This document shows, in pieces, positions 1 to 49,193 of a stretch of 64,000 nt of DNA. Position 1 is the stretch's first letter, and each line of letters starts with the position of its first letter. The DNA comes from Aerococcus sp. (GTDB lineage: Bacteria; Bacillota; Bacilli; Lactobacillales; Aerococcaceae). A program made the translations under genes and the position numbers. Under the pieces are notes generated by a model. It saw only the letters and a list, made by a program, of their open reading frames with translations, made no database searches and had not been told where the DNA came from. The stretch spans positions 94,850-158,849 of the forward strand of contig JAUMZE010000002.1 of NCBI GenBank assembly GCA_030528285.1. The letters run 5' to 3'.

Positions 1-2582
1 TCGATACCGACGACAATGCGGATCAAACCTTCGAAGTTCACTTCGTTCATAAGACCGAACCAGTAACTCCTGACAAACCAGGCAATACGGACATGAATGA
101 ACTCGTTCATAAGGTAACCCAGACCGTTCATTACGTGGACAAAGATGGGAAACCAGTAGCGGATGACGTGACTGACGAAGTCACCTTCCAACGTGAAGGC
201 ACCCGCGACCTGGTAACCGGTGAAGTGACATTCGGCGACTGGGAAGCTGTTGACGATGACGATACGTTCGACGCGAAGAAATCACCAGTGATCGACGGTT
301 ACTACGCAGACCGCACGCAAGTAGATGCTTCGACCGTAACGGCTGACTCTGACAACCAAGAAATCAATGTGGTTTACAACAAACTTGGTAGCTTGATTCC
401 AGACGTCCCAGGCGTAGATCCAGTCCCATATCCAAATGACCCAACCGACCCAACGAAACCAGGTCAACCAGTCATTCCAGATATCCCAGGCTACACGCCA
501 GTGGATCCAAACACGAACAAACCGTTAACACCAGGGGAAGAGTATCCAATTGATCCTAATAAACCGGGTGAAGACACTCACATCCACTACGAGGCCAACC
601 AACAAAAAGCAACGGTGACCTATATCGATGACAAGACTGGTCAAACGATCCACACTGAAAATTTAATCGGCAAGGGTGGCACAAAGAGTGATTACACCAC
701 GGCGGACAAGATCGCAGAACTTGAACAACAAGGCTACGAACTTGTTTCGAATAACTTCCCAGCAGATGGGTTGACGTTCGATACCGACGACAATGCGGAT
801 CAAACCTTCGAAGTTCACTTCGTTCATAAGACTGTTCCAGTCACCCCAGATAAACCGGGCGAACCAGGGAAACCTGTTGACCCATCCAACCCAGATGGAC
901 CTAAATACCCAGACGGTACGGATGTCGACAGTCTCGTTCATAAAGTGACCCAAACGGTTCACTACGTAGACAAAGACGGCAAGAAACTGGCAGACGATGT
1001 GACGGATGAAGTCACCTTCGAACGGACCGGAACGGTTGACCTCGTGACTGGCGAAGTGACCTACACTGAATGGAAAGCGGTTGATGACGACGATACGTTC
1101 GACGCGAAGAAATCACCAGTGATCGATGGTTACTACGCAGATCGTGCACAGGTAGACGCTTCAACGGTTGAACATGATTCCGACAACCAAGAAGTCAACG
1201 TGACCTACAACAAGCTCGGTAACTTGGTACCAGATGCACCAGGCGTCGATCCAGTGCCATATCCAAATGACCCAACCGATCCAACAAAACCAGGGCAGCC
1301 AGTCATTCCGGATGTTCCTGGCTACACACCAGTGGATCCAGACAACAACCCACTGAAACCAGGGGACAAGTATCCAATCGATCCGAATAAACCAGGTGAA
1401 GACACGGATATTCACTACGTTCCAGATAAGGTTGAAAATGATCAAAAAGCAGAGGTTCACTTCATTGATGATGTGACGGGTAAAGACATCCACGTTGAAC
1501 ACTTAACCGGTAAACCCGGCACGACCAGCGATTACACCACGGCGGACAAGATCACAGAACTTGAAAAACAAGGCTACGAACTTGTGAAGGATAACTACCC
1601 AGCAGATGGTCTCGTCTTCGACAACGATGACAATGCGGATCAAATGATTGAAGTTCACTTCAAACATAAGACTGTACCTGTGACTCCAGATAAACCGGGC
1701 GAACCAGGGAAACCTGTTGACCCATCCAACCCAGATGGACCTAAATATCCAGACGGCACGGACGTTAACAGCCTCGTACATAAAGTGACCCAAACGATTC
1801 ATTACGTGGATCAAAACGGCAACAAGCTGGCAGACGATGTGACGGATGAAGTCACCTTCGAACGTACGGGTACCGTGGACCTCGTAACGGGTGACGTGAC
1901 CTACACTGACTGGAAAGCTGTGAACGACGACAACACGTTCGATGCGAAAGTTTCCCCAGTGATTAACGGTTACTATGCAGACCGCGCACAAGTGGATGCA
2001 GTGACGGTAACTGCCGATATGGATAACCAGGAAGTCAATGTCATCTATCACGCGATGGGACATTTGATTCCAGACGTACCAGGAGTGGATCCAGTGCCAT
2101 ATCCAAATGACCCAACCGATCCAACCAAACCAGGTCAACCAACCATTCCGAACGTTCCAGGCTATACACCTGTCGATCCAGATGGCAACCCACTCAAACC
2201 GGGCGACAAGTATCCAATTGATCCAGAAAATCCAGGTTCAGATACGCACATTCACTACGAACCAAACAAGGTCGTTCCTACTCCAGACGACAACAATGGC
2301 CACGTAGATGATAACTCTAATAACAACGGTCAAAATGATGGCGACAATAACCAAAACAATGGTGATAACGGCCAAAACAATGACCAAACGAGCCAAAGTG
2401 ACGAATCTAAACCAAATGCAGAAGCTGAAGAACAACAGTCAACAAATAAAGAGGACATGAACAAGTTGCCGCAAACAGGCGCAGCAACCGATCATAGCTC
2501 CCTCGTTGGTGGTGTATTGTTAGCTGTTGCAGGTGCGTTACAACTTGATGGTCTCTTCAAGAAACGCAAAAAAGAAGACTAA
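1..2582 (+). CDS. Mucin-binding (MucBP/Mub repeat) LPXTG surface protein, 5'-truncated by window edge
   Basis: The frame is open from the first bases of the window, so the gene begins outside and the ATG at 93 is only an internal methionine. What remains is about 860 residues. It consists of Mub B2-like modules (beginning LVHKVTQT...) followed by proline-rich linkers and MucBP modules (beginning KATVTYIDD). The third module lacks the MucBP half and runs into an Asn/Gln/Asp-rich wall spacer. The end is a sortase signal: LPQTG at about 2466-2480, a hydrophobic stretch, then KKRKKED. Proteins of this family are covalently linked to peptidoglycan by sortase A and bind mucus glycans; the exact ligand here is inference. 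The protein is very acidic. A terminator follows at 2621. Family and anchoring are secure; the full length is unknown. Confidence 0.93.
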   Translation, partial: DTDDNADQTFEVHFVHKTEPVTPDKPGNTDMNELVHKVTQTVHYVDKDGKPVADDVTDEVTFQREGTRDLVTGEVTFGDWEAVDDDDTFDAKKSPVIDGYYADRTQVDASTVTADSDNQEINVVYNKLGSLIPDVPGVDPVPYPNDPTDPTKPGQPVIPDIPGYTPVDPNTNKPLTPGEEYPIDPNKPGEDTHIHYEANQQKATVTYIDDKTGQTIHTENLIGKGGTKSDYTTADKIAELEQQGYELVSNNFPADGLTFDTDDNADQTFEVHFVHKTVPVTPDKPGEPGKPVDPSNPDGPKYPDGTDVDSLVHKVTQTVHYVDKDGKKLADDVTDEVTFERTGTVDLVTGEVTYTEWKAVDDDDTFDAKKSPVIDGYYADRAQVDASTVEHDSDNQEVNVTYNKLGNLVPDAPGVDPVPYPNDPTDPTKPGQPVIPDVPGYTPVDPDNNPLKPGDKYPIDPNKPGEDTDIHYVPDKVENDQKAEVHFIDDVTGKDIHVEHLTGKPGTTSDYTTADKITELEKQGYELVKDNYPADGLVFDNDDNADQMIEVHFKHKTVPVTPDKPGEPGKPVDPSNPDGPKYPDGTDVNSLVHKVTQTIHYVDQNGNKLADDVTDEVTFERTGTVDLVTGDVTYTDWKAVNDDNTFDAKVSPVINGYYADRAQVDAVTVTADMDNQEVNVIYHAMGHLIPDVPGVDPVPYPNDPTDPTKPGQPTIPNVPGYTPVDPDGNPLKPGDKYPIDPENPGSDTHIHYEPNKVVPTPDDNNGHVDDNSNNNGQNDGDNNQNNGDNGQNNDQTSQSDESKPNAEAEEQQSTNKEDMNKLPQTGAATDHSSLVGGVLLAVAGALQLDGLFKKRKKED
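102..2276 (+). repeat. Three long in-frame repeats of the mucin-binding protein
   Basis: Repeat units begin at 102, 933 and 1773, giving periods of 831 and 840 bp (277 and 280 residues). The linker at about 845-910 is almost base-identical to that at about 1685-1750, and the first 54 bases of the window are identical to 778-831, which shows that at least one further unit lies upstream. The last unit is shortened. Confidence 0.9.
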
Positions 2583-7442: not shown

Positions 7443-7475
7443 CGGCACAAGGATAACACCTTGTGCCGTTTTTTT
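7443..7475 (+). terminator. Terminator of ptsHI
   Basis: A perfect 10-bp stem CGGCACAAGG / CCTTGTGCCG with a 6-nt loop, followed by seven T. Confidence 0.93.
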
Positions 7476-7748: not shown

Positions 7749-8086
7749 CTTCTCACCTCCCTCACACTCTATCCCACATGAAAAATCGCATGCAGTCAAG
7801 CCCATTAATAATCCTCTGATCACTTCTAACCTCATTTAGCGAAATGCCCACTGATATATCTACTTTTGGGTGTTCACTGCTGCCATTAAGAGACTCTCAC
7901 AAAAATATTTTTATAAACTTATAAATGAACAACCCTTGATAGCATCGCATTCTTAACGTCACTAGTGATTGAATCAGATTTAATCACAAAAATAATGGTT
8001 AAACTTTTTGGGAGAAATCTCGCCTATAGAGGTGTCGTTGGTACCGGTCAGACGACAAGAAAATTATCTCTAAGGAGGAGAAAATT
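7749..8086 (+). other. Non-coding region upstream of the DUF1659 cassette
   Basis: AT-rich and without a credible gene. It holds the ribosome site of the broken HTH gene at its left end, a weak sigma-A-like promoter (TTGAAT at 7969, spacer 16, AATAAT at 7991), and the strong ribosome site TAAGGAGGAG just before 8087. Confidence 0.4.
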
Positions 8087-8281
8087 ATGAAGACATTTGT
8101 ATCTGCGAAATTAACGATGGTGACTGAGGATGAAGCGACGAAGAAGAAAGGACGCCTCACGCTCGGACATGTGAGTGAAGCAATGAATGACGATCAGGAG
8201 AAAGCGGTACTAGATGCGATTGCACCCCTCATGAAGGATCCGGTCATTGAGAAGACCGAAACCCGCGTCTACAGCCTCTAA
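8087..8281 (+). CDS. DUF1659-type small protein
   Basis: 64 residues beginning MKTFVSAKLTMVTEDEA, with a conserved-looking centre around GRLTLGHVSEAMNDDQ. It fits the DUF1659 family of about 70-residue Firmicutes proteins of unknown function, which usually stand next to a DUF2922 gene, as here (24 bp gap). No membrane segment or signal peptide. A strong TAAGGAGGAG precedes the ATG. First gene of the cassette that continues with holin-like proteins and an endolysin. Family assignment is from recollection of its sequence pattern and pairing. Confidence 0.72.
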   Translation: MKTFVSAKLTMVTEDEATKKKGRLTLGHVSEAMNDDQEKAVLDAIAPLMKDPVIEKTETRVYSL

Positions 8282-8305
8282 TCAATCAGAAGGGAGTAAT
8301 GAATC

Positions 8306-8560
8306 ATGGCTACTACAACCACTAAACATCTAGAATTACAATTCCGTAACGACAAGAACCAATTGAAGAAAATCACACTGAACCAACCGAAACCCGATGT
8401 GAATGCAGATCAGGCGAAACAAGCACTGGAAACCATTCAACAAACAGGTGGATTCTTGGATGATGAGGGATTGAACCTCTATGCGACGGTGGAGGGAGCA
8501 GTCTATGTAACCCGCACCGTGGATGATATCTACCAAGCTGAACAACCAGAAGAGAATTAA
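8306..8560 (+). CDS. DUF2922-type small protein
   Basis: 84 residues, starting MATTTTKHLELQFRNDKNQ with the repeated-strand pattern of DUF2922 proteins (LELQFRN, KITLNQPKPDV, ALETIQQTGGF, GAVYVTRTVDDIYQ). Function unknown in any organism I know. The ribosome site AGAAGGGAG precedes ATG at 8306. It follows the DUF1659 gene closely and is probably co-transcribed. In other Firmicutes this pair is recalled next to sigma-factor and YvrJ-like genes, matching the sigma factor gene found 1.5 kb downstream. Confidence 0.72.
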   Translation: MATTTTKHLELQFRNDKNQLKKITLNQPKPDVNADQAKQALETIQQTGGFLDDEGLNLYATVEGAVYVTRTVDDIYQAEQPEEN

Positions 8561-8635
8561 TCATTTATTGATGTTGATTGAACAGCAATCTCCCCGCGCT
8601 ACTCTTTGTGGCGTGGGGGAGAAGGAGGTGACGAG

Positions 8636-8884
8636 ATGGATTTGATCACATTGGGTGGTTACGCGAGTGCATTGAGTGCCGTTATCAGCGTACTAGTCTT
8701 ACTATACCGCTTGTTTTCGGGGCTGGAACATCTACTCACAGACATCCAATTAATCGCACAAACCGTAACCTTACTTGAGGAAAAACAACACCAATTAGAA
8801 CAGGAATTAACACGCCAGGCAGAGCGTTTAGACATCACGTTACAACAACTTCATCGTCCCATTGAAGGGGTGAAACAGGGATGA
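8636..8884 (+). CDS. Holin-like small membrane protein with coiled coil
   Basis: 82 residues starting at the ATG after GAAGGAGGTGACGAG; an upstream in-frame start at 8606 lacks a ribosome site. One membrane helix (about residues 5-27, with a Leu/Val-rich core) is followed by a long amphipathic coiled coil rich in Gln, Glu and Leu. The layout resembles BhlA/UviB-type or haemolysin XhlA-type accessory lysis proteins, but I see no diagnostic motif. Its stop overlaps the next start (ATGA), so the two are translationally coupled. The role as a membrane partner of the holin is inference from context. Confidence 0.65.
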   Translation: MDLITLGGYASALSAVISVLVLLYRLFSGLEHLLTDIQLIAQTVTLLEEKQHQLEQELTRQAERLDITLQQLHRPIEGVKQG

Positions 8885-9174
8885 CTAATCAACAATATAA
8901 CCGTCTCAAATGGATGGTTGTGATCGCATTGCCTGCAACGATCGGTCTCATTCAGGGGATAGGAGAGATCCTAGAGTGGGAGTATACGACGATGACGGTT
9001 GAAATTATCAGTGTTATCACCGTATTTCTCGGGACCTTACTCCAGCAGTCAACGAAGAAGTATTGGAAGGAGTTACCACATGATCACACAAGAAGCGTTC
9101 ATCAAACAAGTCAAACGGATGCTAGGAACGATGCAGGGGGATCAGCGCCATCAGATGTTAGTGAGAGATTATAA
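8881..9174 (+). CDS. Phage Dp-1-type holin
   Basis: 97 residues starting MTNQQYNRLKWMVVIALPA. Two membrane helices (about residues 11-28 and 38-55) are followed by SSTKKY-like STKKYWKE and a polar tail, the layout of the Dp-1 holin family. Holins open the membrane so that an endolysin can reach the wall. The gene overlaps the upstream gene by 4 bp and the downstream endolysin gene by 95 bp in another frame, so the polar tail is encoded over the endolysin start. No other phage structural genes are nearby. Confidence 0.75.
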   Translation: MTNQQYNRLKWMVVIALPATIGLIQGIGEILEWEYTTMTVEIISVITVFLGTLLQQSTKKYWKELPHDHTRSVHQTSQTDARNDAGGSAPSDVSERL

Positions 9175-9871
9175 CCAAGTGACACCTTATCCACGTGGGT
9201 ATCCGGTGAAACTGACGGACGACTGGTGCGATATCTTCGTGACGGTAATGGGGGATCGCGCGGGAATGAGCCATGCGATCGGCCGCGAATGTAGCGTCAA
9301 GCGTCATGTGGATTGGTTCCGGCACCACGGCATCTGGATCGGACGTGCCACACCACGCATGGGGGACATTGTGACATTTGACTGGAACGGCGATCAGTGG
9401 CCGGATCATATCGGAATTGTTACAGCAGTCGAAAAGAATATGATCACCACCATTGAGGGCAATGCGGCGGGGGCCGTGCGTGAACGCCAATACAGTCTGA
9501 ATGCGGGGGTCATCTACGGGTACGCGCGCCCGAATTATCTAGCGGATCCCTCAAATACCCTCATCCAGGCAATCCTGGACGGTCGATGGGGCAACGGGGA
9601 CGAACGGATTCAACGGTTGGAGCGTGCCGGCTACAATTATGCGGCGGTTCAGGATGCAGTCAATGCGGTCATCGCCCATCCACCGCTGTTCATGATCGCA
9701 AAAACCGCCAAACGTTGGGCGACCGGAGAATGGCTTGCCAACTGGGTCAAGGGGCAAACCTTCTCTGTGAAACAAACCCGCTACAACCAGGGGCAACGCG
9801 AGTATCTCCTCATGAACGGCACTGTTCCGCTTGGATGGATCAAGGCAACAGATGGTCAAATCAAAGTATAA
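9080..9871 (+). CDS. Endolysin: CHAP hydrolase with Cpl-7-like wall-binding repeat
   Basis: 263 residues from ATG 9080 (GAAGGAGTT upstream). The CHAP domain spans about residues 20-155: catalytic Cys50 in DDWCDIF, His110 in PDHIGIV and an acidic/Asn partner in TIEGN (126-128). A single Cpl-7/CW_7 module follows (about 162-197, DGRWGNGDERIQRL... AGYNYAAVQDAVN), then an SH3-like C-terminal segment (about 204-263) ending in GWIKATDG. CHAP enzymes cleave peptidoglycan as amidases or endopeptidases; which bond is cut here cannot be told. No signal peptide, so export would depend on the holin just upstream. Not in a recognisable prophage. Confidence 0.88.
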   Translation: MITQEAFIKQVKRMLGTMQGDQRHQMLVRDYNQVTPYPRGYPVKLTDDWCDIFVTVMGDRAGMSHAIGRECSVKRHVDWFRHHGIWIGRATPRMGDIVTFDWNGDQWPDHIGIVTAVEKNMITTIEGNAAGAVRERQYSLNAGVIYGYARPNYLADPSNTLIQAILDGRWGNGDERIQRLERAGYNYAAVQDAVNAVIAHPPLFMIAKTAKRWATGEWLANWVKGQTFSVKQTRYNQGQREYLLMNGTVPLGWIKATDGQIKV

Positions 9872-9874
9872 GAC

Positions 9875-9949
9875 ATGCCTACTCAGTGGATTTCAACGAT
9901 GGCAATCAATGGATTCCTAGCTCACCACATCACTAAAAAATTTGGATAA
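9875..9949 (+). CDS. Possible 24-residue micro-ORF, faintly YvrJ-like
   Basis: ATG lies three bases after the endolysin stop and the frame runs 24 codons to TAA. The start of the peptide, MPTQWISTMAINGFLAHH, loosely recalls the short YvrJ family (tryptophan near the N-terminus, then an NGF/VGFP-like turn), which often accompanies DUF1659/DUF2922 and sigma genes. There is no good ribosome site, so expression would depend on coupling to the endolysin gene. It may equally be chance. Confidence 0.22.
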   Translation: MPTQWISTMAINGFLAHHITKKFG

Positions 9950-9984
9950 AAATCTGATAAAAAGCTGGATTAATGTAGAATTAG

Positions 9985-9993
9985 TGATATAAT
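9985..9993 (+). promoter_or_regulatory. Extended -10 promoter of the sigma-factor gene
   Basis: TGATATAAT is an extended -10 (TG at 9985-9986, TATAAT at 9988-9993) about 90 bp before the start at 10085. No good -35 is present, as is common with extended -10 promoters. Confidence 0.6.
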
Positions 9994-10084
9994 TATTCTA
10001 ACATAAATGACTAAAGAATATAAATATAAAATGTGGCCATTATGATCCGATTGGCTGCAGAAACAACAGTGAGGAGGTATACAT

Positions 10085-10636
10085 ATGGTTGCCACTGTGG
10101 CAGGAGGATTTGACAATGAGTTTTTTGAGACGTTACTGAAGCGATATGAACGTCTCATTCATTACACGTTGTCACGAGCGGCGATTGCTCAAACGGTTTC
10201 TGATTATGACGATTTAGCGCAGGAGTTGCGGTTGAAGCTCTGTGATATCGCCCTTATTGCGCCGTGTCATCCGCTGGCAGAATCGGCTCGTTTTACTGGA
10301 TTTGCGAAACCACGGCTGTATCACTATCTGATTGATCTTCGGCGTGGACATTATCGTAAGCGTTCCCACTATTCGAGTGATGCGTGGCTTGAGGAGACCG
10401 CGTGGGAGGTTGGGTGTGACCAGCAGGAGGAGTTGTTGACGAGGAGCGTGATTAATCAGACACGTGCAGGATTAGATGAGGAGGAGCAGCAATTGTTCGA
10501 TCGTCTCGTGTTGGATGATTGGACGCTGAAGGAAATTGCAGAGGACATGCATCTCTCCATTGCTGCCATCTCAAAACGTCGCGCCCGCCTCAGATGGCAC
10601 CTGCGCCCATTATTGAGAACCTATCAGAATGAATAA
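10085..10636 (+). CDS. Sigma-70 family alternative sigma factor (ComX/SigH-like)
   Basis: 183 residues. Region 2 is visible around residues 10-85 (FFETLLKRYERLIHYTLSR, then DYDDLAQELRLKL, the usual core-binding and -10-recognition helices). Region 4, near 128-178, shows EEEQQLFDRLVLDDWTL followed by an HTH (IAEDMHLSIAAISKRRARLR). No region 1 or full region 3, so it belongs to the short ECF/SigH/ComX class. A perfect GAGGAGGT site precedes the ATG. It has its own promoter and terminator, directly downstream of the holin/endolysin cassette. Whether it controls the cassette or competence genes is open; no anti-sigma gene is visible nearby. Confidence 0.8.
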   Translation: MVATVAGGFDNEFFETLLKRYERLIHYTLSRAAIAQTVSDYDDLAQELRLKLCDIALIAPCHPLAESARFTGFAKPRLYHYLIDLRRGHYRKRSHYSSDAWLEETAWEVGCDQQEELLTRSVINQTRAGLDEEEQQLFDRLVLDDWTLKEIAEDMHLSIAAISKRRARLRWHLRPLLRTYQNE

Positions 10637-11081: not shown

Positions 11082-11609
11082 ATGCGTGAAATGAAAAAAA
11101 AGATTAGAGGATTAAAGCGTAAATGGAAACAAATGATGGTCAATTTGGATAGATTAGCTGAAACAACTAATGATACCAGCGATGAAATTTTCATTGCGGA
11201 GTCATTCGACTACTTTAATAGGAAGATATCTAAGCCATATAAAATCGAATTATTTGAGAAGTTATTAAATATACTCGGCGCTAAACAAAAAAGCGGTGAT
11301 AAGCGATGTTATTTACTATGGTATATTCCAGATGATATATTTGAATCAATAATTCTTATCTTTGATGGATTTAATGAATTAGAGGTTTTTTTAAAAGAAA
11401 GGAACCATAATGTTGTAGACACTGATAATTATCGGTTAGTTCTAAGTGAAGGCAAACTAACGGAAAGTTATATAAATGACAGAGTAAAAAATGAAGAAAT
11501 GGTATCAGTAATAGCAACAATAGATAATGAGGGATTTTTAGATAAAGTGCCCTTGGTATTAATAGCTAGTGAACAAATTATTTCTGTTGTAAAAAAAGAG
11601 TTGAAGTAA
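11082..11609 (+). CDS. Hypothetical AT-rich orphan protein
   Basis: 175 residues, not recognised. It starts with a basic helix (MREMKKKIRGLKRKWKQMM) and continues as a mixed alpha/beta soluble protein with a CYLLWYIPDDIFESIILIF stretch; no signal peptide or membrane segment. Base composition and codon use (many AAA, ATA, TTA, AAT) are much more AT-rich than the neighbours, which suggests recent acquisition. There is no clear ribosome site; an alternative start is ATG 11091. The stop of a short upstream frame overlaps this start region, so coupling is possible. It may be real or a decaying remnant. Confidence 0.5.
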   Translation: MREMKKKIRGLKRKWKQMMVNLDRLAETTNDTSDEIFIAESFDYFNRKISKPYKIELFEKLLNILGAKQKSGDKRCYLLWYIPDDIFESIILIFDGFNELEVFLKERNHNVVDTDNYRLVLSEGKLTESYINDRVKNEEMVSVIATIDNEGFLDKVPLVLIASEQIISVVKKELK

Positions 11610-11897
11610 ATTGACACATACCAGAAAAATAGATCAGTTGACAGAAGCCATAGAATCAGTACAATGAACTCTTGTGATAAATGTTCGGCTTTCACAATTG
11701 GTTAGACGGAAAAGTGGGGGGCAGGAAATTATAAGATATAAAAAGGCATCAGTAGCAAATATCTCCAGTTGCCATCCACCTCCTCTTCAAATTTATGAAT
11801 AAAAAATGAAAAAGCGGTGGTTTTAGCTTATTGATTACGTGAAAGCTATCTATACTAGATAAAGGTAAAAAGCAGTGGACGGAAAGGAGTGGAAAAA

Positions 11898-12773
11898 GTG
11901 CGGATAACGAAGAACATGTTGATGGGAATCGGACTCGGATTATCATTATTAATAGTTAATCCAGGGGAGGCCTCAGCCGATACAATGGATGCAGCTACAA
12001 GGATAGATGCAACTGTGAAGCAAGAGCAGACTACGCCAGCGTGTGCTATCAAAGGGCAGGCGGACGAGCAGCTGGATGATGCGGATGATTTCTTGGAACA
12101 TGCCCTCCCAGTGAGACAGCAGATGATGGAGCAGCAACAGTCTGTCCAATATCTGTCTGAACAAACGTCTGTAGAATCCGCATTGTCCGAGGAGAAGGCC
12201 TCCCTCCAACAAAAATTGGATACGCGCGATCTGTCGACAACAGATCATGAGCAGTTCCAATCTGCCATTCAAGCGGCAGGGAGTGTGGAGGTGCTCTATC
12301 AGATTGAATGTGAGATGGAGGATGCGTCAACGTCCCTATCCATGCCACTCGTTACACTCATTCCAGCCAACATGGTGCATGCCTCTACGAATGAGGAACA
12401 GACCGAAACAGCCAATAGCGCTCAATCCGTGAAACCGGCATCCGCACGTCCAGTTGAATCCAAACAGGTAACTCCTGTGAAGTCAACGCCCAAACCAGTT
12501 GCTCAACCAACAGCTGCCACATCCTCAAACCCAGCAGAGGGGACAGAGATAGCAGCGGCGAATCTGTCCACACAGTCAGCCGAGAATCAGACAGACGCAT
12601 CAAAGCAGGCAGAAAAATCTAATCAGCCACAATCACGGGCAGTCATTGCTTCGGTTCAAGCAACAAATAATGAGATGATTACTCTCATTCCGCCCGCACC
12701 TCGGCTCAATATGTACCTCGGCATTGGGCCCTTGTTGTCCTTGATTGGCGCGTTAATCGCATTTAAGCATTAA
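11898..12773 (+). CDS. Secreted low-complexity surface protein with C-terminal membrane anchor, no LPXTG
   Basis: 291 residues from GTG 11898, chosen because GGAAAGGAG lies 8 nt upstream; GTG 11889 is in frame but overlaps that site. A signal peptide is clear (RITKNMLMG... LLIVNPGEASA, cleavage near residue 27). The mature part is Gln/Glu/Ser/Thr-rich, partly helical, then a proline/threonine-rich spacer. The C-terminus is a hydrophobic helix (YLGIGPLLSLIGALIAF) ending in KH. The order resembles a sortase substrate, but the pentapeptide position reads IPPAPRLN, so covalent anchoring is doubtful. Function unknown. It precedes an LPXTG gene on the same strand but with separate signals. Confidence 0.65.
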   Translation: MRITKNMLMGIGLGLSLLIVNPGEASADTMDAATRIDATVKQEQTTPACAIKGQADEQLDDADDFLEHALPVRQQMMEQQQSVQYLSEQTSVESALSEEKASLQQKLDTRDLSTTDHEQFQSAIQAAGSVEVLYQIECEMEDASTSLSMPLVTLIPANMVHASTNEEQTETANSAQSVKPASARPVESKQVTPVKSTPKPVAQPTAATSSNPAEGTEIAAANLSTQSAENQTDASKQAEKSNQPQSRAVIASVQATNNEMITLIPPAPRLNMYLGIGPLLSLIGALIAFKH

Positions 12774-12848
12774 AAAGCATGGCGAGAAATAATTATCACC
12801 TACATTCGTAAAAATGATGAATGTATTGATAAAACAACTGAAATCATA

Positions 12849-12906
12849 AATAATACCTATCGTTCACAAAAAGTTCTTGCTTATTCTATGAACGATAGGT
12901 ATTATT
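12849..12906 (+). repeat. Perfect 18-bp inverted repeat with 22-nt spacer
   Basis: Arms AATAATACCTATCGTTCA (12849-12866) and TGAACGATAGGTATTATT (12889-12906) are exact complements. There is no T run after it, so it is not a standard terminator, although it stands between two genes. Could be a factor-dependent terminator, a protein site or a small-element relic. Confidence 0.8.
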
Positions 12907-13011
12907 GTTGTAGAGCTTTAGTGATACGCACCATCCATGGATTAGGGATGGCTAGTATATTATATTGGTATGTTAGTATATTGAGAGAAATCCTTTAGGG
13001 AGGAAGTTATT

Positions 13012-14475
13012 ATGGAATTAAAGAAGTTAGGCTTGGGGTTAGCTTCTGTTGCGGTTGCAGCTACGTTAGTTAACAACGGTGCTGTTAAAGCAGCTGAAAA
13101 TGAAAACGTGGACACTACGCCAAAAGTAACCGAAACAGCTGAAGATCAAGCTGCTAAAGATCTCGCAGCTAAGAAAGCAGCATTGATTGCTAAATTAGAC
13201 TCCAGCTCTTTACCATCTGGTCGTGTTTATGAATTAACACAAGAAATCAAAGCAGCTAAGACATTGGATGCATATAAAGCAGTTGAAGCTAAAGTGCTCA
13301 AGGAACTCGAAGCTGTGAAGCCAGAACAAAATACTGATAAAGAACTTGAAGCTAAGAAAGCAGCATTGATTGCTAAATTAGACTCCAGCTCTTTACCATC
13401 TGGTCGTGTTTATGAATTAACACAAGAAATCAAAGCAGCTAAGACATTGGATGCATATAAAGCAGTTGAAGCTAAAGTGCTCAAGGAACTCGAAGCTGTG
13501 AAGCCAGAACAAAATACTGATAAAGAACTTGAAGCTAAGAAAGCAGCATTGATTGCTAAATTAGACTCCAGCTCTTTACCATCTGGTCGTGTTTATGAAT
13601 TAACACAAGAAATTAAAGCAGCTAAGACAATGGATGCTTTCAAAGAAGTAGAGGCTAAAGTACTTAAAGAACTTGAAGCTTTGAAACCAGATAAAGACGA
13701 CAACCAAGATAATGACAAACCGGAAACACCAGCAGTCAAGGAATACACCGTTAAATATGTTGTAAAAGACAAAGACGGTAAAGAGGTTAAAGTCCTTCAA
13801 ACCGAAACTTGGAATGACTGGAAAGCAATGGAACAAGGCTCTGTTGTTGTTGCTAACAGCTACATGAAGGAATACGGTAACTGGGATGTTATTGCAACCG
13901 CTGAAGGGTTAACCTATGTCTTCACTCAGAAAGAAGAAACTCCAGATACCCCAGCAGTCAAAGAATACACCGTTAAATATGTTGTAAAAGACAAAGACGG
14001 TAAAGAAGTTAAAGTTCTTCAAACCGAAACCTGGAATGACTGGAAAGCAATGGAACAAGGCTCTGTTGTTGTTGCTAACAGCTACATGAAGGAATACGGT
14101 AACTGGGACGTGATTGCAACGGCTGAAGGGTTAACCTATGTCTTCACCGCTAAGGAAGATACGCCATCAACCCCAGATAAACCAGAAACCCCAGATAAAC
14201 CTGGTACACCTGACAAGCCATCAACACCTGATAATAAACCAGGTAAAGAAGATGGCAAAGAAGACAGTAAAGAAGAACACAAAGGTCATATCGACAACAA
14301 GACCGATAAGACCAATAAGACTGACAAGAAAGAAAACAAAGCTAAAGCCAACAAGAAACAAATGAAGAAGAACGCAGCGAAACTGCCACAAACAGGCGCA
14401 ACCGCAGCTGGCTTAGGACTCGGCTTGACACTGTCTGCAGTTGGTTCTGTCTTCGCCTTCAAGAAACGTCAATAA
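13012..14475 (+). CDS. LPXTG surface protein with GA-like helical repeats
   Basis: 487 residues. The signal peptide runs to about residue 28 (KKLGLGLASVAVAATLV... AVKA). Three 61-residue helical repeats follow (AKKAALIAKLDSSSLPSGR... AVEAKVLKELEA), with the size and three-helix pattern of protein-G-related albumin-binding (GA) modules. Then come two 74-residue repeats (YTVKYVVKDKDGKEVKVLQ... GLTYVFT), a Pro/Thr then Lys/Asp-rich wall spacer, and the sorting signal LPQTG with hydrophobic tail and KKRQ. Sortase A should fix it to the wall. Ligand binding by the GA-like part is inference. GGAGGAAG precedes the ATG. A terminator follows at 14530. Confidence 0.9.
   Translation: MELKKLGLGLASVAVAATLVNNGAVKAAENENVDTTPKVTETAEDQAAKDLAAKKAALIAKLDSSSLPSGRVYELTQEIKAAKTLDAYKAVEAKVLKELEAVKPEQNTDKELEAKKAALIAKLDSSSLPSGRVYELTQEIKAAKTLDAYKAVEAKVLKELEAVKPEQNTDKELEAKKAALIAKLDSSSLPSGRVYELTQEIKAAKTMDAFKEVEAKVLKELEALKPDKDDNQDNDKPETPAVKEYTVKYVVKDKDGKEVKVLQTETWNDWKAMEQGSVVVANSYMKEYGNWDVIATAEGLTYVFTQKEETPDTPAVKEYTVKYVVKDKDGKEVKVLQTETWNDWKAMEQGSVVVANSYMKEYGNWDVIATAEGLTYVFTAKEDTPSTPDKPETPDKPGTPDKPSTPDNKPGKEDGKEDSKEEHKGHIDNKTDKTNKTDKKENKAKANKKQMKKNAAKLPQTGATAAGLGLGLTLSAVGSVFAFKKRQ
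13171..14151 (+). repeat. Two tandem repeat arrays inside the LPXTG gene
   Basis: Array one: units at 13171, 13354 and 13537, period 183 bp (61 codons); the first two units appear base-identical and the third diverges only in its second half. Array two: units at 13738 and 13960, period 222 bp (74 codons), nearly identical. Confidence 0.93.
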
Positions 14476-47885: not shown

Positions 47886-47948
47886 AATTTTCCTAGGCAA
47901 AAACAAAAGAACGATTTTCGACGTATCTATCTATTAGAAGGTGAATCG

Positions 47949-49193
47949 ATGAAAGCAGAAACTATTGCGGTGGGTACAGAGATGTTGATGGGGCAGATTG
48001 TGAACACGAATGCCCCGTACATTGCGCATTACTTGAATCAATTAGGGATTGAGCATTATTGGGAAACAGTGGTTGGCGATAATCCAACCCGTCTCGTGGA
48101 AGCCACTCAACTCGCCGAACAGCGCAGTGACATTATTATTTATACAGGTGGCATTGGGCCCACGCGCGATGATTTGACCAAGCAGACGGTGAGTGAGTAC
48201 CTCCATGAACCGTTGATCCACGATGAAGCCACCTTAATATCGATTAAAAACTGGCTCAAAAAACGTGAGCTCGCTGTGACCGAGAATAATTTGGAGCAGG
48301 CATTGACGTTTGAACATGGGACCCCGCTCCCTAATCCAGTGGGCATGGCGGTCGGGACCGCCCTCACGAAACAAGGCGTGACTTACATTTTCTTGCCGGG
48401 TTTTCCAGGGGAGATGCGCGCGATGTTTGAAACCGCGGTGGATCCGTATCTCAGGCAGTTGATCGGGGACCAATCGATCATTACGTCGAGGTACTTGAAT
48501 TACTTTGGGATTGGCGAGGCACAACTCGCAAGTGACATTGACGATTTGATTGAGTCGCAAACCAATCCGACCCTCGCCATCTATGCGTCAGGACGCACTG
48601 TGACGGTGAGGACGACCGCCCGCAGTCAATCCGAAGAGACCAACAACCAGGCATTAAGTGCAATGGCAAACCAGATTAACCAACGTCTGGGTGCGTACTA
48701 TTATGGTGAGGGACTGAACGTCTACCCGAGTGAGGCGCTCGTCAATCGCTTGAAACAGCTTGAGCAAACGGTGACGGTTTGTGAGAGTCTGACCGGGGGA
48801 TTGGCAAGCCATGAGATCGTGAGTGTCGCAGGGGCTTCCAACGTCTTCCATGGAGGGCTCGTGACCTATGACGCGCCTGCTAAAATCAAATTGGCCCACG
48901 TGGATCAACAAACTATCACAAAACATGGCATGGTGAGCGTGGAATGTGCGCGTGAAATGGCTCTCGGCGCTAAGGAACAACTACAGACGAATTATGCGAT
49001 CAGCTTTACGGGTGTAGCGGGTCCTGATCAGATGGAGGAACAGCCAGTGGGGAGTGTTTACATTGGAATCGCTGGTGTGAAGGAAGAACCAATCGTGAAA
49101 CATTTTCAATGGAACGGATCGCGCACCTTCATCCGTCAGCGGGCCGTCGATCAGGGATTTATTCTCCTATTAGAACAGCTCAAACAACAGTAA
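47949..49193 (+). CDS. cinA: Competence/damage-inducible protein CinA
   Basis: 414 residues. The N-terminal MoeA/MogA-like domain shows GTEMLMGQIVNTNAPYIA and YTGGIGPTRDDLTKQTV; the C-terminal amidase domain shows VTVCESLTGGLASHEIV and SFTGVAGPD, giving the two-domain form with possible ADP-ribose pyrophosphatase and nicotinamide-mononucleotide deamidase activities. In streptococci cinA and recA are co-induced in competence; here a LexA box lies between them. GAAGGTGAATCG precedes the ATG. Confidence 0.95.
   Translation: MKAETIAVGTEMLMGQIVNTNAPYIAHYLNQLGIEHYWETVVGDNPTRLVEATQLAEQRSDIIIYTGGIGPTRDDLTKQTVSEYLHEPLIHDEATLISIKNWLKKRELAVTENNLEQALTFEHGTPLPNPVGMAVGTALTKQGVTYIFLPGFPGEMRAMFETAVDPYLRQLIGDQSIITSRYLNYFGIGEAQLASDIDDLIESQTNPTLAIYASGRTVTVRTTARSQSEETNNQALSAMANQINQRLGAYYYGEGLNVYPSEALVNRLKQLEQTVTVCESLTGGLASHEIVSVAGASNVFHGGLVTYDAPAKIKLAHVDQQTITKHGMVSVECAREMALGAKEQLQTNYAISFTGVAGPDQMEEQPVGSVYIGIAGVKEEPIVKHFQWNGSRTFIRQRAVDQGFILLLEQLKQQ

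What the first reader, a model, noticed from the sequence alone, without database searches (positions are those of the whole stretch)
8087..10636. Self-standing lysis cassette joined to an alternative sigma factor
Six co-directional genes in 2.6 kb: DUF1659, DUF2922, a holin-like coiled-coil protein, a Dp-1-type holin, a CHAP/Cpl-7 endolysin and, with its own promoter, a ComX/SigH-like sigma factor. There are no phage head, tail, integrase or terminase genes around, so this is not an ordinary prophage end. From established knowledge, DUF1659/DUF2922 pairs are recalled beside sigma factors in Firmicutes, and sigma-plus-holin pairs (UviA/UviB) release toxins or bacteriocins. The inference is a domesticated, sigma-controlled lysis or secretion module, perhaps for release of DNA or proteins by a subpopulation.
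Basis: partly seen in the sequence, partly recalled or inferred. Interest (0 to 1): 0.78.

Follow-up and report, generated by a model that had tools for sequence, protein, structure and literature searches.

The report
Sigma-controlled chromosomal lysis operon
This bacterium carries, outside any virus, a small gene set for opening its own cell that appears to have its own dedicated switch; relatives keep the switch and two unexplained small proteins while swapping the wall-cutting enzyme, which points to an undescribed programme of controlled lysis or protein release.

Summary
The six genes are real and the cassette is no prophage end. Relatives keep sigma factor, DUF1659, DUF2922 and a peptidoglycan hydrolase together, often with holin genes: 40 of 77 DUF loci have sigma, DUF2922 and hydrolase. 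The hydrolase is CHAP, amidase_2, amidase_5, GH73 or GH25 in 50 of 69 scanned downstream genes. A conserved promoter, GGTnACACTT-N13-CGTTnTTAnnGGTGTAAG, precedes DUF1659 (58 of 74 versus 0 of 609 controls) and gives the best site of the window. A strict pattern hits once in each of 19 of 100 genomes, 18 times before DUF1659; the window's looser site does not match it. This is not the competence box of comG, comEA and cinA. Yet in 31 of 44 genomes holding both, a ComK-family gene lies within 2 kb of the sigma gene; none was found in the window's genome. Best reading: a sigma-governed lysis or holin-export programme, in many relatives probably under a ComK-family regulator. Lysis, release and sigma-promoter recognition are untested. 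The open library searched held no paper naming DUF2922.

The parts
7997..8042 (+). cassette promoter GGTTAAACTT-N14-CGCCTATAGAGGTGTCGTTGGT, presumed target of the cassette sigma
   Evidence: score 16.4 with a model built without any locus of the genus; next best site in the 64 kb, both strands, 9.6; 0 of 609 control upstreams reach 12 with that model
8033..8057 (+). inverted repeat at the likely 5' end of the operon transcript (TGTCGTT...GACGACA)
   Evidence: 62 loci: mean stem 6.0 pairs versus 3.9 in shuffles, arm sequences differ between genera; the window's copy alone is not significant, z -0.56
8087..8281 (+). DUF1659 protein, 64 aa
   Evidence: Pfam PF07872, 27 bits over cut-off 24.1
8306..8560 (+). 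DUF2922 protein, 84 aa
   Evidence: Pfam PF11148, 63.6 bits; profile-level relation to DUF1659, hhalign probability 92.6
8636..8884 (+). small protein with one hydrophobic segment and coiled coil, 82 aa, holin-like
   Evidence: max 17-residue hydropathy 2.0; homologues at the same place in relatives
8881..9174 (+). Dp-1-type holin, 97 aa
   Evidence: PF16938 58.6 bits, phrog_881 holin 1.9e-19
9080..9871 (+). leaderless CHAP + CW_7 (Cpl-7 type) endolysin, 263 aa
   Evidence: PF05257 and PF08230 over cut-off; C50, H110, E126 and N128 invariant in 20 aligned lysins, the window's included
10085..10636 (+). cassette sigma factor, 183 aa, a second alternative sigma of the genome
   Evidence: TIGR02937 52.9 bits over 42.9; 159.5 bits to the cassette-sigma model, which was trained on sequences including this one, versus 32.2 for the genome's SigH-like factor

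Best explanation
A chromosomal, sigma-controlled lysis/export operon. The sigma gene (10085-10636), probably transcribed on its own, makes a dedicated factor that recognises one main promoter (7997-8042). That promoter drives DUF1659, DUF2922, a TM coiled-coil protein, a holin and a leaderless wall hydrolase. The holin pair opens the membrane, the hydrolase reaches and cuts the wall, and the cell lyses or leaks in a controlled way. DUF1659 and DUF2922, kept while the rest is swapped, are either the cargo or the regulators of this step. In many relatives a ComK-family regulator next to the sigma gene probably sets when it fires. Shown: gene content, conservation, promoter, exchange of hydrolase type, ComK-family neighbour. 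Inferred: that this sigma reads this promoter, that cells lyse or export, what is released, and when.
For: Conservation: of 77 loci with a DUF1659/DUF2922 gene, 18 (window included) hold all six genes co-directionally, 14 sigma-first and 4 sigma-last; 40 hold sigma, DUF2922 and a wall hydrolase. Named Aerococcaceae: 13 of 80 lysin-found loci hold lysin plus the DUF pair. Co-occurrence: cassette sigma (E <= 1e-20) in 68 of 78 DUF2922+ genomes and 0 of 22 without, Fisher 9e-15, relatedness not corrected. Promoter: 58 of 74 versus 0 of 609 at score 15; one site per genome in 19 of 100 genomes, 18 before DUF1659. It is kept where the sigma gene lies elsewhere (G003, G085), so the sigma could act in trans. 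Hydrolase slot: 50 of 69 downstream genes, by families CHAP 24, amidase_2 15, GH73 15 (13 of these, by my tally, beside another catalytic domain), GH25 6, amidase_5 3. The holin is exchanged too: L104 has Phage_holin_4_1. 46 of 49 relatives' hydrolases show no signal peptide by a simple rule. No sigma or DUF2922 match in 50,697 phage records at E 0.01.
Against: Nothing shows expression, lysis or release. The loci were collected by DUF2922 or DUF1659, so the constancy of the DUF pair is partly by selection; L271 (Fundicoccus) has sigma, coiled-coil protein, holin and lysin without the pair beside them. 19 of 69 downstream genes are not hydrolases and 8 further loci have none to test. Several genomes of the same genus keep DUF1659-DUF2922 with the promoter but no lysis gene beside it (L071, L074, L075, L077, L078, L081). 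Several lineages have the hydrolase with no recognisable adjacent holin (L106, L108, L109, L112, L114-L117 among others), and L110, L130, L131 hydrolases do have a signal peptide. 16 of 74 DUF1659 upstreams score below 15, and the strict promoter pattern misses 81 of 100 genomes, the window's own included. The window's 5' repeat does not fold better than shuffles. I recognised no anti-sigma gene but made no dedicated search for one.
Confidence: 0.6

Rival explanations
1. Competence-linked module: a ComK-type regulator and a SigH/ComX-like sigma turn on wall opening or fratricide-like release as one arm of the competence state.
For: ComK-family gene within 2 kb of the cassette sigma in 31 of 44 genomes holding both, 27 divergent; PF06338 itself matches in 34 of 100 genomes, 29 over its cut-off; a ComK-related family beside DUF1659-DUF2922-YvrJ in 11 of 30 loci from the wider phylum.
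Against: Cassette promoter absent from 60 comG/comEA upstreams (59 distinct), best 7.4; the com box CGTATCTAT is absent before 8087 though present before cinA at 47922. ComK boxes are not enriched between comK-like and sigma genes: 4 seen, 4.5 expected. No ComK-family hit in G000, G004, G005, G011, G012, G014; G000 is only 85% complete. Of ten ComK-related proteins scanned from the wider phylum only one passes Pfam's cut-off.
Confidence: 0.3
2. [quoted passage not shown]
For: The DUF pair precedes the lysis genes; sigma + holin + endolysin beside cargo is the published arrangement at clostridial toxin and Bcn5 loci (PMC9527704, passages).
Against: DUF1659/DUF2922 match no toxin or bacteriocin family in the libraries scanned; lineages without a recognisable holin exist.
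Confidence: 0.3
3. Leftover lysis end of a decayed prophage.
For: Holin and CHAP lysin are phage-type families.
Against: No phage structural or integrase family among the 25 listed of 41 PHROG families; the six genes recur together in 17 relatives' loci with differing neighbours; sigma and DUF2922 have no match in the phage records.
Confidence: 0.03
4. Cell-wall stress operon of an ECF-like sigma in which the hydrolase remodels the wall without lysis.
For: The promoter resembles ECF promoters (AAC and CGT elements; recalled, not tested); a wall hydrolase is the commonest last gene.
Against: Hydrolases mostly lack signal peptides and many sit behind holins.
Confidence: 0.12

Closest known systems
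UviA-UviB-amidase of the Bcn5 bacteriocin loci, and sigma + holin + endolysin at large clostridial toxin loci (review PMC9527704, passages seen)
   Same: dedicated sigma factor, holin and amidase/endolysin in one locus outside a phage
   Different: here no recognisable toxin or bacteriocin gene; steady partners are DUF1659 and DUF2922; chromosomal over a family and parts of its order; ComK-family neighbour in many relatives
Bacillus subtilis SigO (YvrI)-RsoA-YvrJ (recalled)
   Same: small sigma with a YvrJ-type protein; YvrJ is common after DUF2922 in the wider phylum (PF12841 in 25 of 74 scanned ORFs from 30 loci)
   Different: no DUF2922 match in the B. subtilis control genome; no wall hydrolase is recalled there; no sequence comparison with SigO was made
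SigH/ComX competence sigma of lactobacilli (PMC3364868, passages seen)
   Same: sigma-70 superfamily, similar size
   Different: own genome has a separate SigH-like gene beside cysS; the cassette sigma scores far apart from it and its promoter is not the com box
Pneumococcal competence fratricide (CbpD, LytA, CibAB; recalled)
   Same: wall hydrolases tied to a competence regulator
   Different: here a leaderless lysin with holin and a separate sigma with its own promoter

Membership tests
prophage lysis module | flanked by phage structural, terminase or integrase genes | tested here: not met
   46 window ORFs against PHROGs, none of these kinds among the 25 of 41 families listed; ORF list read by eye
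prophage lysis module | holin followed by overlapping endolysin of phage families | tested here: met
UviA/UviB-type sigma-holin release system | sigma factor gene linked to holin and endolysin | tested here: met
   window; relatives
UviA/UviB-type sigma-holin release system | toxin or bacteriocin cargo gene in the locus | tested here: inconclusive
   no such match, but DUF1659/DUF2922 and the 175-aa ORF at 11082 are uncharacterised
UviA/UviB-type sigma-holin release system | sigma drives the locus | not testable with these tools
   only a conserved promoter and co-occurrence are shown
late competence regulon (SigH/ComX) | shares the promoter of comG and other late com genes | tested here: not met
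   60 com upstreams score at most 7.4 for the cassette promoter; CGTATCTAT present before cinA, absent before 8087
late competence regulon (SigH/ComX) | sigma is the cysS-side SigH | tested here: not met
   separate SigH-like gene at G000:C9:70331 (gene names there recognised by eye)
ComK-controlled system | ComK-family gene linked to the locus | tested here: inconclusive
   31 of 44 relatives with both, none found in the window's own genome and nearest kin
ComK-controlled system | AAAAN5TTTT boxes before the target (recalled motif) | tested here: not met
   4 seen versus 4.5 expected in 25 comK-sigma intergenic regions
SigO/YvrI sigma system | RsoA co-sigma partner | not tested
   no search for RsoA was made

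The most novel reading that the evidence does not exclude
An ancient Bacillota programme in which a ComK-family regulator and/or a dedicated sigma factor triggers programmed opening of some cells, releasing two conserved small proteins (or DNA with them) through exchangeable holin-lysin parts: a competence-allied altruistic lysis or fratricide system unknown until now.
Probability: 0.22. Interest if true: 0.9.

Novelty: new variant of a known kind. Interest (0 to 1): 0.72.

Why it matters
DUF2922 is in about half of the Bacillota genomes sampled (147 of 299), and the paper search found no description of it or of the pair. Tying the pair to a dedicated sigma, a promoter that seems to serve one operon, exchangeable lysis genes and a ComK-family neighbour gives it a first testable function. 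It would be a new route by which lactic-acid-type bacteria decide to open cells.

Tried and rejected
Competence-promoter sharing: tested and rejected. ComK boxes in 25 comK-sigma intergenic regions: not enriched. CAAGNNCTTG palindrome before the sigma gene: 6 of 56 versus 6 of 679 controls, confined to some clades, not pursued. Plasmid origin: DUF2922 matches 7 plasmid records, of which I opened three: the A. tenax 591-kb record carries the whole cassette, the L. crispatus and L. johnsonii ones the DUF pair without lysis or sigma genes in the stretch shown; the sigma matches 4 plasmid records, of which the one E. faecium record opened has unrelated neighbours. Phage origin of the lysin: CHAP matches in 41 phage records, all below 60% identity, none with 80% of the query covered. 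A second coiled-coil-holin-lysin set in Abiotrophia (L280) shows no phage genes by eye in its ORF list. Defence-system reading: only weak 2TM-effector matches for the holin. Paper searches listed no paper that I could recognise from its title and the abstract's start as describing this module; only the open library was searched, and passages were seen of PMC3364868, PMC9527704 and PMC1524751 only. PMC1524751 (passages) calls ComK exclusive to Bacillales among 58 genomes; searches find ComK-family proteins in genomes of the window's order.
Full report
What is there. Two same-genus genomes, G011 and G004, have contigs of the same lengths (67,293 and 37,438) as two Aerococcus sp. MAG contigs found by name, so I take the genus as Aerococcus, family Aerococcaceae; this is inference. 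Six co-directional genes lie at 8087-10636 as reported and match the stated families. A strong terminator-like hairpin (7443-7468) follows the gene before. The surroundings look like chromosomal housekeeping by the ORF list (read by eye). No phage structural, terminase or integrase family is among the 25 listed of 41 PHROG families hit.

Conservation. Searching 100 relatives, DUF2922 matches in 80 (78 over the curated cut-off) and DUF1659 in 67. I fetched 80 longer stretches; with the window, 77 of 81 carry a DUF1659 or DUF2922 gene. All six genes stand co-directionally in 18 of these 77, 14 with the sigma gene first and 4 (G004, G011, one of two G048 loci, the window) with it last; sigma, DUF2922 and a wall hydrolase occur in 40 of 77. 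Because the loci were found by the DUF pair, its constancy is partly by selection. Aerococcus tenax shows the same set under public annotation. A search by lysin in named genomes gave 80 loci; 13 hold the lysin and the DUF pair: Aerococcus (3), Ruoffia (2), Globicatella (2), Abiotrophia, an unnamed Aerococcaceae, Hutsoniella, Eremococcus, Ignavigranum, Dolosicoccus. L271 (Fundicoccus) has sigma, coiled-coil protein, holin and lysin without the pair; L280 and L321 have partial sets; the others show only a CHAP match.

The exchangeable enzyme. Of 69 first downstream genes scanned, 50 are wall hydrolases of five catalytic kinds: families matched are CHAP 24, amidase_2 15, GH73 15, GH25 6 and amidase_5 3, some proteins carrying two (single proteins; the 50 is my tally from these). 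Eight further loci had no downstream ORF of 140 aa, making 50 of 77 loci. Other genes at that place include YidD (3), VanZ (2) and ribosomal S7 (2). Exchange of the enzyme type under a conserved head is the strongest sign that wall cutting is what is selected. By a simple rule 46 of the 49 relatives' enzymes lack a signal peptide; L110, L130 and L131 have one. The holin is exchanged in L104, and several lineages show no holin beside the enzyme.

A dedicated promoter. Before DUF1659 stands GGTnACACTT-N13-CGTTnTTAnnGGTGTAAG. At score 15 it is met by 58 of 74 DUF1659 upstreams and 0 of 609 control upstreams; some of the 74 are near-identical relatives. With every locus of the genus left out of the model, 12 of 15 genus members score 15 or more, none of 609 controls reaches 12, and the window's site (16.4) is the best of the whole window, the next being 9.6. 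A strict pattern over 100 genomes hits once in each of 19 and nowhere else in them; 18 hits are directly before DUF1659, the exception being G093; the reversed control pattern hits once; the window's own genome has no strict match. So the sigma appears to serve one operon, at least at that stringency. The promoter is kept where the sigma gene is elsewhere in the genome, as in G003 or G085. An inverted repeat follows at the likely transcript start, with arms that differ between genera (62 loci, mean stem 6.0 against 3.9); the window's copy is not significant alone.

The sigma. Own-genome search gives nine matches, the three over the cut-off being an RpoD-like gene, a SigH-like gene beside cysS and the cassette factor (names by eye). 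The cassette-sigma model, trained on sequences that include the window's, scores the window factor 159.5 bits and the SigH-like one 32.2. Strong cassette sigmas (E <= 1e-20) are in 68 of 78 genomes with DUF2922 and 0 of 22 without. Shared descent inflates this; of the ten exceptions G097 has a weaker match (1.2e-14) beside its DUF2922.

Competence. In this genome comG, comEA and, inside the window, cinA (PF02464, followed by recA) have CGTATCTAT just before the gene. The cassette does not have it, and the 60 comG/comEA upstreams collected (59 distinct) do not have the cassette promoter, best 7.4. However, PF06338 (ComK) matches in 34 of 100 genomes, and a wider model, which also includes two high-scoring ComK from family f7, in 54. 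Ten of these 54 lack a strong cassette sigma, among them five of f7, which I take for Listeriaceae, without DUF2922. Of the other 44, 31 have the ComK-family gene within 2 kb of the cassette sigma (largest gap 1,147), 27 of them divergent. Same-genus genomes G003, G006, G008, G009, G010 and G013 are among them; G000, G004, G005, G011, G012 and G014 have no hit. ComK boxes are not enriched between the genes. The link is positional only.

Wider phylum. DUF2922 is in 147 of 299 Bacillota genomes. In 30 short loci among the best-scoring, the usual company is DUF1659, DUF2922 and the small protein YvrJ (PF12841 in 25 of 74 ORFs scanned), with amidase_2 in 5 ORFs and amidase_3 and peptidase M15 in one each. 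A sigma of this profile is in 5 loci and a ComK-related family in 11; of ten of its members scanned only L371 passes Pfam's ComK cut-off. DUF1659 and DUF2922 are related at profile level.

How it most likely works, and limits. The sigma turns on one operon; two small proteins of unknown role are made first, then membrane and wall are breached. Whether this kills the cell, exports the pair or frees DNA cannot be told from sequence. That the sigma reads the promoter is inferred from co-occurrence. The known systems it works like are the clostridial sigma-holin-endolysin loci (PMC9527704, passages); it is not filed as a member because no cargo toxin or bacteriocin is recognisable.

Noticed in passing
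window 47922-47930, before cinA at 47949: Likely late-competence promoter box CGTATCTAT before cinA-recA, shared with comG and comEA of the same genome.
   Followed up: partly
L399-L404, L106, L108, L109, L112 and others: ComK-family proteins in Lactobacillales genomes, where a 2006 survey of 58 genomes held ComK to be exclusive to Bacillales.
   Followed up: partly
L349, L350, L356, L357, L360, L364, L367, L368, L369, L371, L376: A ComK-related family beside DUF1659-DUF2922-YvrJ in other Bacillota; of ten members scanned one passes the Pfam cut-off.
   Followed up: partly
L258 (CP127381.1, Aerococcus tenax): A 591-kb record labelled plasmid carries chromosomal-looking genes (murQ, the cassette); it may be a chromosome fragment.
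   Followed up: no
window 11082-11609: 175-aa ORF after the sigma gene with no family over a cut-off and no homologue among the loci fetched.
   Followed up: partly
window 11889-14475: A 294-aa protein and a repeat-rich LPXTG protein follow the sigma gene, with counterparts after the sigma gene in G011 (L079).
   Followed up: no
window 93-2582: Mucin-binding (MucBP, Muc_B2) LPXTG surface protein.
   Followed up: no
L280 3268-4666: Second coiled-coil-holin-CHAP set in Abiotrophia defectiva without sigma or DUF genes beside it.
   Followed up: partly
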